DNA of 64,000 nucleotides from Pirellula staleyi DSM 6068 (GTDB taxonomy: Bacteria > Planctomycetota > Planctomycetia > Pirellulales > Pirellulaceae): NCBI GenBank assembly GCA_945875845.1, contig CAMCMB010000011.1, positions 1-64,000 on the forward strand, given 5' to 3'. Position 1 is the stretch's first letter. Every line of letters starts with the position of its first letter. Shown here in pieces: positions 13,583 through 58,703 of this stretch. The translations under genes were made by a program, and so were the position numbers. The notes beneath the pieces were generated by a model. That model had not been told where the DNA came from. It did no database searches and saw only the letters and a list, made by a program, of their open reading frames with translations.

Positions 13583-13740
13583 ACCAGCCGGAACGCGGTA
13601 GCATCCTGTTGCTTTAATGATACGACGGACTTCCTAGTCCGTCGAATTCCCCATTGACGGATTTGGAAGTCCGTCATACCACCCTTACCGACCTCACCGA
13701 ATAACGACTTCACTAAACCAACAAGCCTCTAGCGTCCGGT
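13583..13740. repeat. Nested palindromic repeat: short TIR element (copy 1) in a host palindrome
   Basis: The inner element, about 13604-13728, ends in CCTGTTGCTTTAAT and TAAACCAACAAGCC, degenerate forms of ends shared by three other copies in the window. Inside are two short palindromes: GACGGACTTCCTAGTCCGTC at 13624-13643, and a related one at 13656-13675. Its orientation is opposite to the copies at 42566 and 44146. The flanks, GCCGGAACGC on the left and CTAGCGTCCGGTTTATC on the right, are two halves of a separate palindrome that also flanks the copy at 42566. It lies between convergent genes. Confidence 0.8.
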
Positions 13741-13761
13741 TTATCAAAAACAGGGCCGTGC

Positions 13762-14800: not shown

Positions 14801-14863
14801 TCACCGGAGGGCTTGCGCCCTGCCGCTATCAAAGGTAGCGGAACGGCGCAAGCCGTCCGGTGA
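14801..14863. repeat. GC-rich inverted repeat (class C, copy 1)
   Basis: Arms TCACCGGAGGGCTTGCGCC (from 14801) and GGCGCAAGCCGTCCGGTGA (to 14863) pair with few mismatches around an A/T-containing loop. A related pair of arms, arranged the other way round, lies at 44423-44502. It could fold as a hairpin at the RNA level. Confidence 0.75.
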
Positions 14864-15110
14864 GTCAACCACCGTGCCCGTGGGCGAGCGATCGCAGTCG
14901 GCCCTCGCTTACGGGCTTGTTGATTTAATCACAACCCGAAGTGTAAACGAGGGACTCTTTGCCCCTCACTAACATTTCGGGTTATGATAAAACCATAGCT
15001 TAGGTAAAGACTCATTAAATCAACAAGCCCTTACGCGTCGGGTTGTCAAATAGTCGCCTCGCTTACGCGTCGGGTTGCGATGTAGCCGCCCAAAGTGGTC
15101 CATCCGCTAC
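14864..15110. repeat. Host palindromic repeat interrupted by short TIR element (copy 4)
   Basis: The inner element at 14913-15030 has nearly perfect 17-base ends: GGGCTTGTTGATTTAAT, and its reverse complement ATTAAATCAACAAGCCC. It is bracketed by TTAC on both sides (14909-14912 and 15031-15034), which looks like a target duplication. Its core differs from the other copies: arms AACCCGAAGTGTAAACGAGG and CCTCACTAACATTTCGGGTT form another imperfect palindrome. Outside it lie the two halves of a host repeat, CAGTCGGCCCTCGCTTAC and TTACGCGTCGGGTTG, plus a further partial copy ending near 15110. Confidence 0.8.
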
Positions 15111-28183: not shown

Positions 28184-28277
28184 GGCAATTTTCCTTTTCA
28201 AAAGTTGAGACACATACAAAACCAAATTCTAAATGCAGCTCCGCTAAGCACATCCGCAACTGTTTTTCAACCCAATT

Positions 28278-28350
28278 AGCCGTTGGGCGATAGCCCCGGT
28301 TTTCCAATTGCTCGACATTCGTCGAGAACCGGGGCTATCGCCCTTCGGCT
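28278..28350. repeat. Long hairpin upstream of pspA
   Basis: Arms AGCCGTTGGGCGATAGCC... and its near reverse complement ending at 28350 pair over 24 bases with two mismatches; the inner 17 (28285-28301 and 28327-28343) are perfect. The loop of 25 bases has its own small hairpin (CTCGACATTCGTCGAG). It lies between the membrane-protein gene and pspA on the same strand, and could be a terminator, an attenuator or a dispersed repeat. Confidence 0.7.
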
Positions 28351-28395
28351 ATCAGTTTGTTTCACTCGAAGACTCATACCGATGTGCTTAGGAAG

Positions 28396-36462: not shown

Positions 36463-36490
36463 GCTATGATTGGATCCGCGAGGGGCAAAA

Positions 36491-36696
36491 CATAGTCGCC
36501 TTTTGCTCCGCAAAAGGTGTGTGAATGACGCATTCTTTCGCGGATAGGATGATTTTTGGATGGACCACTTTTTGGCGGCAGTTTGAAAACCCGACGCGTA
36601 AGCGAGGAGCCGACTGCAATCCCTCGCTCACGCGTCGGGTTACCATATACTATCCGACGGAGAACGCATCTTTCGTGGAGCGAAAGGCGACGATCA
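36491..36696. repeat. Composite palindromic repeat (class B), intact copy
   Basis: A 54-bp core, AACCCGACGCGTAAGCGAGG at 36588 with CCTCGCTCACGCGTCGGGTT ending at 36641, is surrounded by further inverted sequences. The left outer arm includes ATAGTCGCCTTTTGCTCCGC and the right outer arm GGAGCGAAAGGCGAC. The left half (36491-36587) is the reverse complement, with some differences, of 44270-44375, and the right half matches 43963-44020, so this is a second copy of that element in the other orientation. It spans the gap between the DUF1501 and hydrolase genes and reaches up to the hydrolase start. Confidence 0.8.
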
Positions 36697-42438: not shown

Positions 42439-42765
42439 GTCCGTCCAAAAAGTTGTAGTGTGTCGCCATGGGAGAAACCAAAGTACAGCTAAGTCTAATC
42501 GATTTTGAGCTCGAAACCTCGCGATGGCATCGATAACTGTCCTAATTAGCCGGAACGCGCTAGCGGGCTGTTGATTTAGTGAAGTCGTTATTGGGTAACG
42601 GCGGTACGACGGACTTCCTAGTCCGTCGATGGGGAATTCGACGGACTAGGAAGTCCGTCGTACCATTAAATCAACAAGCCGCTAGCGTCCGGTTTATCGA
42701 GAACCGTAGGAGCACCGTCCTTCGGACGGAGTGGCTAAAACTAAGGCGTAATGCCAGCGGCATTT
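42439..42765. repeat. Intergenic region with nested palindromic repeat, TIR element copy 2
   Basis: The inner element at 42566-42680 has ends GGCTGTTGATTTA and TAAATCAACAAGCC. Its core holds two exact, oppositely placed copies of a short sequence, GACGGACTTCCTAGTCCGTC (near 42608) and GACGGACTAGGAAGTCCGTC (near 42639), about 11 bases apart. It splits a host palindrome into GCCGGAACGC and CGTCCGGTTTATC, with CTAG on each side (42560-42563 and 42682-42685). A small GTCCTTCGGAC hairpin follows near 42709. I see no gene in the gap. Confidence 0.8.
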
Positions 42766-43962: not shown

Positions 43963-44375
43963 CTATAGTCGCCTTTCGCCCAGCGAAAGTACGCGTTCTC
44001 CCTCGGGTAGGCTATGGTAACCCGTGCCCGTGACGGCTCGGTGGCATGGGCGTCTCGCCCATGGATTCACGAGCGAGCGCGCTCGTGCCACGCTATGGTA
44101 ACCCGTGCCCGTGAGCGAGGGATTGCAGTCGGCTCCTCGCGTACCGGCTTGTTGATTTAGTGAAGTCATTATTGGGTAAGGGCGGTGAGACGGACTTCCA
44201 AGTCCGTCAATGGGGAATTCGACGGACTAGGAAGTCCGTCGTACCATTAAAGCAACAAGCCGTTACGCGTCGGGTTGTCAAACTGCCGCCAAAAGTGCTC
44301 CATCCAAAAATTCACAGCCTATCCGCGAAAGAACGCGTCATGACCACTGCTTTTGCGGAGCAAAAGGCGACTATG
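43963..44375. repeat. Composite palindromic repeat (class B) with two insertions
   Basis: This is the plus-oriented counterpart of the repeat at 36491-36696, about twice as long. Its ends are TAGTCGCCTTTCGCC near 43966 and GGAGCAAAAGGCGACTATG ending at 44375. Two insertions interrupt it. First, a 58-base piece (44034-44091) with two neighbouring hairpins (CATGGGCGTCTCGCCCATG and CACGAGCGAGCGCGCTCGTG) lies between two exact 23-base copies of one sequence (44011-44033 and 44092-44114). Second, TIR element copy 3 lies at 44146-44261. No gene is seen in 43868-44678. Confidence 0.8.
44146..44261 (+). mobile_element. Short TIR element copy 3 (MITE-like)
   Basis: Ends GGCTTGTTGATTTA and TTAAAGCAACAAGCC are near-perfect inverted repeats. 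The core holds two 20-base inverted sequences, GACGGACTTCCAAGTCCGTC and GACGGACTAGGAAGTCCGTC, about 12 bases apart; the whole core is close to the copy at 42566. It sits in the class B core between CTCCTCGCGTAC and GTTACGCGTCGGGTT. Sites are degenerate (GTAC and TTAC) compared with the clear TTAC and CTAG duplications of two other copies. It is too short to code for a transposase. Confidence 0.75.
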
Positions 44376-44422
44376 TTTGGACGTCAGACCAATGGCAACC
44401 GCGTTCGGTTCGAGTCAACGAG

Positions 44423-46172: not shown

Positions 46173-48578
<2,406 letters not shown>

Positions 48579-48580
<2 letters not shown>

Positions 48581-48895
48581 CTTCTCTGTTTGGTTAGGAA
48601 ACTGACCGCAGTAGGTTATTCGATTAAGCCGACGTTTAGCAGATACGCAAAACGTCGGCTTTTTTCGTATTTTCCTGCAAGCTTCAGGGGCTCGAACACT
48701 CTCCAGAGACTCGAATCCCAGCCGCGACTCTCGCCAAAACAGCCCCTCTCTGGGGGCCAACCAGAGACAAAAACTCTCAAAGTCTCTGGGTTATGAAAAC
48801 CGCCGGGTTAACGACTCTGGGTTATGAATTGTCCGCCTGACAGGACTTTCTTTTTGTTCCATTGATCTGCCTCACTAAGAGGCCAAAGTTGCGAA
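48579..48895. repeat. Island boundary repeat, copy 1 (317 bp)
   Basis: The sequence begins AACTTCTCTGTTTGGTTAGG at the tRNA 3' end and ends GCCTCACTAAGAGGCC...GCGAA. It is closely matched by copy 3 at 58386-58703, and its last 180 bases by copy 2 at 55095-55275. Shared landmarks are a terminator hairpin, GGGGCTCGAACACTCTCCAG, CCCCTCTCTGGGGGCCAA and two copies of CTCTGGGTTATGAA. The position next to tRNA-fMet suggests an attachment site. Confidence 0.85.
48626..48666 (+). terminator. Rho-independent terminator after tRNA-fMet
   Basis: A perfect 12-base stem, AAGCCGACGTTT at 48626-48637 and AAACGTCGGCTT at 48650-48661, is followed by a run of T. It lies about 45 bases after the tRNA gene and would end its transcript. 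Confidence 0.85.
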
Positions 48896-54324: not shown

Positions 54325-55176
54325 ATGGCCCTCCTCGTACGCCGCTATCGAGTATGGCTTTATTTCGCAACTACTGGGAAAGTGAGCGCTGCGACACGAA
54401 CTGAAGCCGAGTCGCTTGCCGCGAAAGCGAGCGGGGATGTTACGCTTGACGTCATCGATGGCAAAGGAATTTCGCTTCTAGTGAGAGACTACTTGGATGG
54501 CGTCGCCCCGCCGATACCTGGCTTGGAACTTGAGATGGAAAAAGCTCCCAACGTAACCGTGAATGGAGTTTCTCAACGTTACGATGACGAAAACAAAATC
54601 GAGTCCTGGGTATTCTCAATGAGGGGAGATGCAGTAGCGGCAATCTTTCAGTATGCCGGTGTCAGGCTCTTCGCTCGTAACATACGAGGCTTCCTTGGTG
54701 GTACGACGGCGGTAAATGAAGGCATGCTGCAAACGTTGATGCATGAGCCAGATCGGTTCATCTACTACAATAACGGAGTAACCATTCTTTGTGACGAAGC
54801 AAAGAAGGAGAGCAAGAAAGGAAAGGATATTCTCGTAGTTGCGAATCCCCAGGTAATAAATGGGCAACAAACGACCAGAACTTTGGCGAGTCGTCCGGAA
54901 CTTGCAAAGAAGGCAAGTGTGTTAGTCAAAGTGGTGCAGGTTACCCGAGAAGCTGGAACAAACGGATTTGAAGAGTTGGTTTCTAGAATCGTACAGGGAA
55001 CCAATTCGCAGAACTCGATAAGGCAGTCAGACCTGACGGCAAATGACCGAATACAGATCGATCTTGAACGCTCGCTGCGAAAACTTGGGTACGCTTTCCG
55101 GTCGCAACTCTCGCCAAACCAGCCCCTCTCTGGGGGCCAATCAGAGACAACTACTCTCAGAGTCTCTGGGTTATGA
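54325..55176 (+). pseudogene. AIPR-family gene, truncated at both ends
   Basis: From about 54343 to 55097 the frame matches the AIPR family (abortive-infection phage resistance). It has LYFATTGKVSAATR, DVIDGKGISLLVRDYLDGV, GDAVAAIFQYAGVRLFARN, IRGFLGGT, FIYYNNGVTILCDEA and PQVINGQQTTRTLA. Full-length members are about 550-700 residues, so roughly the first 200-250 and the last 200 residues are missing. The 5' end begins near a junction with the DUF2924 gene. The 3' end runs into repeat copy 2 at 55095, which supplies a foreign tail (LSPNQPLSGGQ) and the stop. AIPR proteins are phage-defence proteins in some systems; here the gene is very unlikely to work. Confidence 0.8.
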
Positions 55177-55275
55177 AAACCGTCGGGTTAACGACTCTGG
55201 GTTATGAACCGTCTGTCTCACTCGGGATTCTTTTTTTCAGCTGTTCTGCCTCACTAAGAGGGCCAATGTTGCGAA
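55095..55275. repeat. Island boundary repeat, copy 2 (3' part only)
   Basis: It matches the last 180 bases of copies 1 and 3: TTTCCGGTCG, CTCTCGCCAAACCAGCCCC, CTCTGGGGGCCAA and two CTCTGGGTTATGAA motifs. The terminator and tRNA-adjacent part are lacking. It interrupts the AIPR reading frame and divides the island into two compartments. Confidence 0.85.
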
Positions 55276-58320: not shown

Positions 58321-58385
58321 AGCTTTGGCTCCTCGGTTTGGCTCTTTCATGACCTGGAGGTCGCAGATGAGCCAGCCCAAATTTC
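58321..58385. other. Degenerate tRNA-fMet-like sequence before repeat copy 3
   Basis: CATGACCTGGAGGTCG at about 58348 differs at two positions from the tRNA segment CATAACCTCGAGGTCG, and the sequence after it runs directly into AACTTCTCTG just as the real tRNA does. The acceptor and T arms are not recognisable. It looks like a decayed tRNA end, as expected at the far side of an element integrated into tRNA-fMet. No functional tRNA. Confidence 0.5.
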
Positions 58386-58703
58386 AACTTCTCTGTTTGG
58401 TTAGGAAACTGACCGCAGTAGGTTATTTGAAGAAGCCGACGTTTAGCACACAAGCAAAACGTCGGCTTTTTTCGTATTTTCCTGCCATCTTCCGGGGCTC
58501 GAACACTCTCCAGAGACTCCATTTCCGGTCGAGACTCTCGCCAAATCGGCCCCTCTCTGGGGGCCAATCAGAGACAAATACTCTCAGAGTCTCTGGGTTA
58601 TGAAAACCGCCGGGTTAACGACTCTGGGTTATGAACCGTCTGACTGACTCGGGTTTCTTTTTTATCCATTGATCGGCCTCACTAAGTGGTGCCAAGTTGC
58701 GAA
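58386..58703. repeat. Island boundary repeat, copy 3 (318 bp)
   Basis: Almost the whole of copy 1 is repeated here in the same orientation, including AACTTCTCTGTTTGGTTAGG, GGTTATT, the terminator hairpin (58433-58472), CTCTCTGGGGGCCAA, two CTCTGGGTTATGAA motifs and a GCCTCACTAAG end. Copies 1 and 3 bracket about 9.5 kb. Confidence 0.85.
58433..58472 (+). terminator. Terminator hairpin in repeat copy 3
   Basis: The 12-base stem AAGCCGACGTTT and AAACGTCGGCTT, followed by a T run, is the same as in repeat copy 1 except for loop bases. Confidence 0.75.

What the first reader, a model, noticed from the sequence alone, without database searches (positions are those of the whole stretch)
13583..13740. 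A family of four short elements with shared ends, each inserted in another palindrome
Elements at 13604-13728, 42566-42680, 44146-44261 and 14913-15030 share inverted ends (GGCTTGTTGATTTA/TAAATCAACAAGCC with variations). All four split a second, separate palindromic repeat. Clear tetramer repeats flank two of them, CTAG and TTAC. That pattern suggests small mobile elements that prefer the middle of palindromes. Only hairpin-like structure is shared by the host sites; their sequences differ.
Basis: seen in the sequence. Interest (0 to 1): 0.7.

Follow-up and report, generated by a model that had tools for sequence, protein, structure and literature searches.

The report
Miniature transposons nested inside palindromes
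The four short repeats are copies of a large family of small, gene-less jumping DNA pieces that land in the middle of other hairpin-forming repeats, very probably moved by a known type of bacterial transposase (IS1182) that seeks out palindromes.

Summary
The four copies (13603-13727, 14914-15029, 42565-42680, 44146-44261) belong to a family with 437 ends in the 7.0 Mb genome (reversed-pattern control 0). Three share one interior (class A, 116 bp in 64 of 69 collected copies); the second copy has another interior between the same ends. Insertion is shown: 36660-36540 (minus strand) is an empty paralogue of the 44146 site, lacking the element and a 4-bp duplication. 45 of 67 class A copies have identical flanking tetramers (permuted mean 13.6), and target sequence is locally self-complementary around the tetramer. 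They are MITEs. IS1182-family insertion sequences of the same genus carry matching ends, and IS1182 relatives elsewhere often lie at palindrome centres. No close transposase is in the held assembly of this genome, so mobilisation there is inferred. Palindrome targeting by IS1182/IS1272 and an IS1182-type MITE are already in print; what looks new is loop duplication instead of stem-loop deletion, the copy number, and self-nesting: the main target palindrome is the interior of elements with the same ends in related species. At five loci the closest relative lacks the element; at one it has an unoccupied hairpin at the insertion point.

The parts
13603..13727 (-). Element 1, class A, 125 bp; end at 13603 degenerate (ATCCTGTTGCTTTA), end at 13727 GGCTTGTTGGTTTA
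13598..13601 (.). left target tetramer GTAG of element 1 (right one CTAG at 13729-13732)
   Evidence: direct reading
13585..13748 (.). CTAG-centred host palindrome split by element 1 (arms 13585-13601 and 13729-13748)
   Evidence: empty copies elsewhere
14914..15029 (-). Element 2, class B, 116 bp, perfect 14-bp inverted ends, interior is a P-type palindrome
14909..14912 (.). TTAC target duplication, left (right copy 15031-15034)
   Evidence: direct reading
15057..15076 (+). unoccupied P-type target site (CCTCGCTTACGCGTCGGGTT) about 30 bp beyond element 2
42565..42680 (+). Element 3, class A, 116 bp
42560..42563 (.). CTAG target duplication, left (right copy 42682-42685)
   Evidence: direct reading
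42548..42700 (.). CTAG-centred host palindrome split by element 3
44146..44261 (+). Element 4, class A, 116 bp
44141..44144 (.). target tetramer GTAC, left (right copy TTAC 44263-44266)
   Evidence: direct reading
44110..44294 (.). P-type host repeat split by element 4
36540..36660 (-). unoccupied paralogue of the element 4 host site (CTCGC-TTAC-GCGTC intact)

Best explanation
[quoted passage not shown] The transposase recognises the ~15-bp ends (S-GGCTTGTTGATTTA), inserts at the centre of a locally palindromic site (most likely a hairpin or cruciform loop) and duplicates the central 4 bases. Shown: the ends, the insertion, the 4-bp duplication, the preference for palindromic sites, and same-genus IS1182 elements with matching ends. 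Inferred: that the transposase acts in this very genome, that it recognises extruded DNA structure rather than sequence, and the DDE chemistry. Most class A targets in this genome are P palindromes, which in related species are the interior of elements with these same ends, so the family lands largely in its own relatives.
For: 437 ends at <=1 mismatch, control 0. Class A: 64 of 69 copies exactly 116 bp; those 64 have mean pairwise identity 92.6%. Identical flanking 4-mers in 45 of 67 copies, permuted mean 13.6, maximum 22 in 1000 permutations. In-window filled versus empty pair, and class B intact versus split by class A. Symmetry over 27 distinct reconstructed class A targets (mostly two host families, so not independent): 0.49 at the tetramer centre; 48 other offsets 0.14-0.41, 29 of them 0.2-0.3. 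Only 2 of 38 elements lie mostly inside six-frame ORFs of >=130 aa although these cover 83% of that DNA. Partner: L136, a 1784-bp IS with a 528-aa transposase above NCBIfam's IS1182 cut-off and ends GGCTCGTTGCTTTA, an end variant on 4 of 10 class C ends of this genome; L146 has the exact 14-bp end behind a transposase C-terminus 67% identical to L136's; L220 has the exact end on both sides. 31 copies of a related IS in strain TBK1r, by eye mostly in palindromic repeats, 25 with identical 4-mers. In L177 and L178 the duplicated bases equal the loop of a 7-bp and a 5-bp perfect stem; in L220 a 7-bp stem has its 3-nt loop inside the duplication. In G014 the orthologue of one insertion point is a perfect 6-bp stem with loop GTAT where this genome has the duplicated GTAA; only 9 of 14,901 positions of that stretch have such a stem.
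Against: No close IS1182 transposase in the held assembly of this genome: one IS1182 HMM match (C24, 307-aa frame) without matching ends and without tblastn similarity to L136's; DUF772 0 matches. The smallest contig seen is 3,088 bases, so a collapsed IS could be missing. 22 of 67 copies lack identical 4-mers. In the fold of the whole P palindrome the tetramer lies in the stem, and so does that of the class A site at C4:146 kb as it reads in this genome. In TBK1r the symmetry is 0.57 and 0.52 one base either side of the tetramer centre but only 0.29 at it. L205 has a duplication but no palindrome; 6 of 9 single IS sites with a duplication have no perfect stem of 4 bp or more at the insertion point. 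At four of five loci the relative showed no empty host at the insertion point.
Confidence: 0.85

Rival explanations
1. The transposase recognises the sequence of particular repeats (CTCGC-TTAC-GCG, GCG-CTAG-CG), and palindromy is incidental because those repeats happen to be palindromic.
For: 62 of 69 class A sites fall into two host families, P on both sides (47) and the CTAG palindrome (15); the P repeats are themselves high-copy.
Against: Related IS1182 elements sit at centres of palindromes with unrelated sequences (TBK1r repeats, L177, L178, L220, L137, L169). Across eight single IS sites with a duplication 37 of 64 arm positions are complementary, binomial p 2.5e-8 at a null of 0.25 and 3.6e-6 at 0.30 (arm counts, p; the L205 count was by hand; these were the sites whose ends and duplication could be read).
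Confidence: 0.25
2. The elements are REP/REPIN-like repeats moved by a RAYT-type tyrosine (HUH) transposase.
For: Interior hairpins resemble REPs; a RAYT-like ORF lies directly beside the IS in L138 (MPDHIHL motif read by eye).
Against: Inverted ends plus a 4-bp target duplication, and IS with a DDE-family transposase and the same ends. That HUH transposition leaves no duplication is recalled, not from a call. RAYT genes were not searched for in this genome.
Confidence: 0.05
3. Element plus host palindrome is one composite unit that spreads as a block, by recombination or as a larger transposon; the 'insertion' is an ancient internal feature.
For: At four of five loci compared, the closest relative G014 lacks both the element and a recognisable copy of the host; tandem element-P-element arrays exist.
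Against: Empty hosts exist: 74 P places with control 0, intact CTAG palindromes, and an empty/filled pair in the window. The same element occurs in different hosts, class B occurs with and without class A inside, and one G014 locus has an unoccupied hairpin at the insertion point.
Confidence: 0.06

Closest known systems
IS1272 / TnSha1 of staphylococci (IS1182 family), PMC5678879 and PMC4923244 (passages read)
   Same: Same transposase family; targets are hairpin-forming inverted repeats with little shared sequence; ~16-bp inverted ends.
   Different: IS1272 and TnSha1 are reported to leave no target duplication and to delete part or all of the stem-loop. Here 45 of 67 class A copies have an exact 4-bp duplication, an outcome PMC5678879 draws only as a possible pathway (loop duplication). 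Four single IS copies here (L136, L206, L218, L225) have inverted flanks without a direct duplication, like IS1272 (the exact end positions of the last three are ambiguous).
MITEPye1 of Paracoccus yeei, an IS1182-type MITE (PMC11578231, passages read)
   Same: Gene-less element with IS1182-like ends, direct repeats, folds into a long stem-loop, intergenic.
   Different: 1-3 copies per chromosome there, against 437 ends here; the word 'palindrom' does not occur in its main text (count 0), and the passages shown describe no nesting.
IS elements that insert specifically into REP sequences, e.g. ISPsy8, ISPa11, ISPpu9, ISPpu10 (PMC1525189, abstract and section list seen)
   Same: Repeated palindromes serve as insertion hot spots.
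   Different: The abstract describes IS elements in other bacteria, not MITEs that carry the target palindrome themselves.
ISPse1 of Paracoccus (IS1182 family; a table row in a passage of PMC3281130 gives 16/16 and 4, read here as inverted repeats and direct repeat length)
   Same: Same family and apparently the same duplication length.
   Different: One captured element; 'palindrom' does not occur in that paper's main text (count 0).

Membership tests
MITE | short (about 70-300 bp), no coding capacity | tested here: met
   64 of 69 class A copies are 116 bp; too short for a transposase gene. Definition from a PMC3733652 passage.
MITE | terminal inverted repeats of about 15-30 bp | tested here: met
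   14-bp ends plus an extra base, C..G in 53 of 67.
MITE | target-site duplication | tested here: met
   45 of 67 identical 4-mers; filled/empty pair.
MITE | ends shared with an autonomous element | tested here: met
   L136, L138 and L146 in the same genus, L220 in another planctomycete.
MITE | mobilised by that element's transposase | not testable with these tools
   needs a transposition assay; no close transposase in the held assembly.
IS1182 family (for L136, the proposed partner) | transposase matches the curated IS1182 model over its cut-off | tested here: met
   352.8 bits against a cut-off of 270.
IS1182 family (for L136, the proposed partner) | palindromic targets in some members | tested here: met
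   L136 lies between the arms of a P palindrome, with no direct duplication.
IS1272-type stem-loop replacement | stem-loop deleted and no target duplication | tested here: not met
   45 of 67 class A copies have an exact 4-bp duplication and the in-window pair keeps both arms; a few class A copies, e.g. in L053 (by eye), and four IS have inverted flanks without duplication.
REP/RAYT (REPIN) | GTAG tag and flanking tyrosine transposase | not tested
   no search for RAYT genes was made in this genome.

The most novel reading that the evidence does not exclude
A self-feeding MITE system: IS1182-type transposases attack hairpin loops, duplicating the loop, and the elements they move carry strong palindromes of their own that are (in the P type) the preferred landing site. 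Each insertion therefore supplies a new target, giving Russian-doll nesting and exchange of interiors between constant ends, and could explain how much of the palindromic repeat content of these planctomycete genomes arose.
Probability: 0.4. Interest if true: 0.7.

Novelty: new variant of a known kind. Interest (0 to 1): 0.52.

Why it matters
It links palindromic repeats of planctomycete genomes to a transposase family, and provides a natural collection of insertions (437 ends in this genome, plus 31 copies of one IS read in TBK1r) for asking whether a DDE transposase reads DNA structure instead of sequence. The duplicated tetramer at the hairpin centre is a clean, testable prediction that differs from the published stem-loop deletion by IS1272.

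Tried and rejected
IS4/IS5-type partner: five DDE_Tnp_1 hits in this genome, none with matching ends. DUF772: none. An apparent 2.7-kb pair of ends on C1 (149890 and 152560) turned out to be two separate 116-bp elements. The twenty last-numbered contigs (3.1-7.7 kb) were read with the other loci for ends leading into unknown sequence: of 138 distinct ends 17 were unclassified, of which by eye 10 are class C, 2 class A variants and 5 chance matches; none was recognised as an IS end. Orthologous sites in G014: five loci compared; element absent at each, right or intergenic alignments poor. At one of them (C4:146 kb) there is a hairpin at the insertion point; at the window element 1 locus G014 has other hairpins in its 155-nt intergenic stretch. 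For comparison, 160 of 2000 random 60-nt stretches of L286 hold some stem of 6 or more, so only the exact position at C4 is noteworthy. The element 3 and 4 loci could be aligned with G014 contig C10 only up to 42459. Copies dropped before counts: class A copies without a recognisable hairpin or end were not collected; 64 further records, taken to be mainly the same elements read on the other strand, were set aside; two odd-length copies, one of them window element 1, were dropped. Hairpin pairs outside strictly bounded elements: 6 in 460 kb, of which 3 have both ends at up to 5 mismatches, 2 one good end, and 1 (L077 13603) no recognisable end. In one search L205 was tested with a wrong boundary; one search corrected it (duplication CATG, no palindrome). 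Of the 73 loci, 25 were given; 3 gave no inverted ends (L170, L212, L224), 2 repeat L136 and L137, and ends or duplication of L167, L173, L201, L207, L208, L210, L219 and L227 were unclear and not counted. 31 TBK1r copies were treated as a set; the remaining loci were not analysed. Idea not tested: lengths of 116 and 126 bp are close to 11 and 12 helical turns. Literature: searches; no listing showed a high-copy IS1182 MITE nested in palindromes, but for most hits only title and start of abstract were seen, and subscription papers and ISfinder are not held.

Full report
The observation. Each is bounded by GGCTTGTTGATTTA-type inverted ends, with one extra base outside each end that is usually complementary (C..G in 53 of 67 class A copies), and then by a tetramer: GTAG/CTAG, TTAC/TTAC, CTAG/CTAG and GTAC/TTAC. 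The end occurs 437 times in the genome at <=1 mismatch (219 forward, 218 reverse, reversed-pattern control 0). In 40 relatives it is enriched in some same-genus genomes (G020 84, G014 59, G016 30, G022 21, G015 19, G023 17; controls 0-1) and rare in the others; the 15 genomes of other genera have 0-7 matches each, controls 0-2.

Anatomy. From the loci and stretches of this genome fetched by that point I collected 69 class A copies: ends, about 30 bp of left spacer, and two inverted hairpins of the GACGGACT..AGTCCGTC type. 64 of 69 are exactly 116 bp, with mean pairwise identity 92.6%. In 460 kb of window and stretches, 6 hairpin pairs lay outside strictly bounded elements: 3 have both ends at up to 5 mismatches, 2 have one good end and 1 has none. 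The window's second element (14914-15029) has a different interior, a P-type palindrome, yet the same ends and the same 116-bp length (class B). A third class (C) has yet another interior; 4 of its 10 ends seen read GGCTCGTTGCTTTA. 2 of 38 elements lie mostly within six-frame ORFs of >=130 aa, which cover 83% of that DNA.

They inserted. The minus strand of 36660-36540 is an unoccupied paralogue of the element 4 site: apart from point differences and small indels, it differs by the element plus a 4-bp duplication. Class B is intact in the window and split by a class A element in L075. Identical tetramers flank 45 of 67 class A copies; permuting partners gives a mean of 13.6 and a maximum of 22. 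Unoccupied P sites occur at 74 places at <=2 mismatches, control 0. CTAG palindromes match at 20 places at <=3 mismatches, control 0, several of which are visibly ends of filled sites.

Where they insert. Hosts of the 69 copies: P on both sides 47, CTAG palindrome 15, P on one side 5, other 2. On 27 distinct reconstructed targets (identical tetramers only; mostly the two host families), complementarity between the sides is 0.49 when centred on the tetramer; at the 48 other offsets it runs 0.14-0.41, 29 of them between 0.2 and 0.3. Folded alone, the local P site puts TTAC in a 4-nt loop, and the CTAG palindrome puts its centre in a loop shifted by one base; the complete P palindrome folds with TTAC in the stem, and so does the class A site at C4:146 kb as reconstructed from this genome. 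So 'middle of a palindrome' holds locally, not for the whole of P.

The partner. A genus-wide search with the IS1182 transposase model (27 genomes; 14 with a match, 4 over the cut-off) gave IS with these ends: L136 (1784 bp, GGCTCGTTGCTTTA on both sides, 528-aa transposase), L137 (GGGCTGTCTATTTA, 4 mismatches to the MITE end), L138 (GGGCTGTTGATTTA, right end off the contig) and L146 (exact end behind a transposase C-terminus 67% identical to L136's). A scan of genome contigs gave 73 relatives, among them L220, from another planctomycete, with the exact 14-bp end on both sides. The other IS1182-model loci fetched from the genus show no such pair of ends. This genome's own single IS1182-model match is without the ends and without tblastn similarity to L136's.

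The partner's relatives behave alike. Of 31 copies of an IS1182 element (1991 bp, GGCCTGTCGGTTTA) read in strain TBK1r, most lie by eye in palindromic repeats; 25 have identical 4-mers; symmetry is 0.57 and 0.52 one base either side of the tetramer centre and 0.29 at it. Among nine single IS copies with a duplication, L177 and L178 have the duplicated bases exactly as the loop of a perfect stem (7 and 5 bp), and L220 has a 7-bp stem whose 3-nt loop lies within the duplication; L137, L168, L169, L172, L204 and L205 have no perfect stem of 4 bp or more there. Arm complementarity over eight of them (without L220) is 37 of 64, p 2.5e-8 at a null of 0.25 (arm counts, p, L205 counted by hand). L136, L206, L218 and L225 have inverted flanks without a direct duplication, as reported for IS1272; L175 shows neither clearly.

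Nesting. In related species P is the interior of elements with these ends: of 18 P-type starts listed, 9 have both ends (six of 112-126 bp, plus 218, 248 and 362 bp), and by eye 5 of these 9 are themselves inserted between P arms. The main host of class A is therefore probably an older member of the same family.

Comparison with the closest relative. G014 (97% identical over a 342-aa protein) lacks the element at five loci: window elements 1 and 2 and three places in L078. At C4:146 kb (L078 6025) the left flank is conserved and G014 reads GGTCAG-GTAT-CTGACC, a perfect 6-bp stem with a 4-nt loop exactly where this genome has the duplicated GTAA; 9 of 14,901 positions of that stretch have such a stem. 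The right flank does not align, so this is suggestive, not proof. At the other four loci no copy of the host palindrome was recognised.

What is known. IS1272 and TnSha1 (IS1182 family) target hairpins and delete them wholly or partly without duplication (PMC5678879, PMC4923244; passages); both papers cite a review saying that some IS1182 members target palindromes. An IS1182-type MITE is on record in Paracoccus (PMC11578231; passages) and apparently a 4-bp duplication for ISPse1 (PMC3281130; table row). REPs as IS targets are also known (PMC1525189; abstract). The present family is thus a new variant: many copies, loop duplication, constant ends with exchangeable palindromic interiors, and self-nesting.

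Certainty. MITE identity and insertion are shown by sequence. IS1182 as the driver is strongly supported by shared ends but untested by experiment and without an intact copy in the held assembly. Recognition of structure rather than sequence is an inference.

Noticed in passing
window 14808-14870: Two inverted copies of a palindrome (CACCGGAGGGCTTGCGCCCTGCCGCTA / TAGCGGAACGGCGCAAGCCGTCCGGTG) that by eye is the same repeat that IS1182 copies occupy in strain TBK1r; unoccupied here.
   Followed up: partly
window 36488-36695 and 43965-44378: A larger composite repeat in opposite orientations, with ends reading ATAGTCGCCTTTYGC; it contains the P site and may itself be a mobile unit.
   Followed up: no
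window 48578-48877, 55095-55236, 58385-58684: Separate repeat family of up to 300 bp (90% identity between the two long copies) with an AAGCCGACGTTTAGC..ACGTCGGCTT hairpin.
   Followed up: no
window 28277-28351: Strong palindrome TAGCCGTTGGGCGATAGCCCCGG; by eye a related sequence lies next to an element in relative G023 (L100) and in G014 at the orthologue of window element 1.
   Followed up: no
L138 561-1355: RAYT-like ORF (MPDHIHL read by eye) directly beside an IS1182 element with GGGCTGTTGATTTA ends.
   Followed up: no
G000 contigs C2, C8, C9, C37, C76, C123, C135: Several contigs begin within about 450 bases of an element, suggesting that these repeats break the assembly.
   Followed up: no
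L078 10333-10863: Tandem array of class A elements alternating with P units, period 152 bp.
   Followed up: partly
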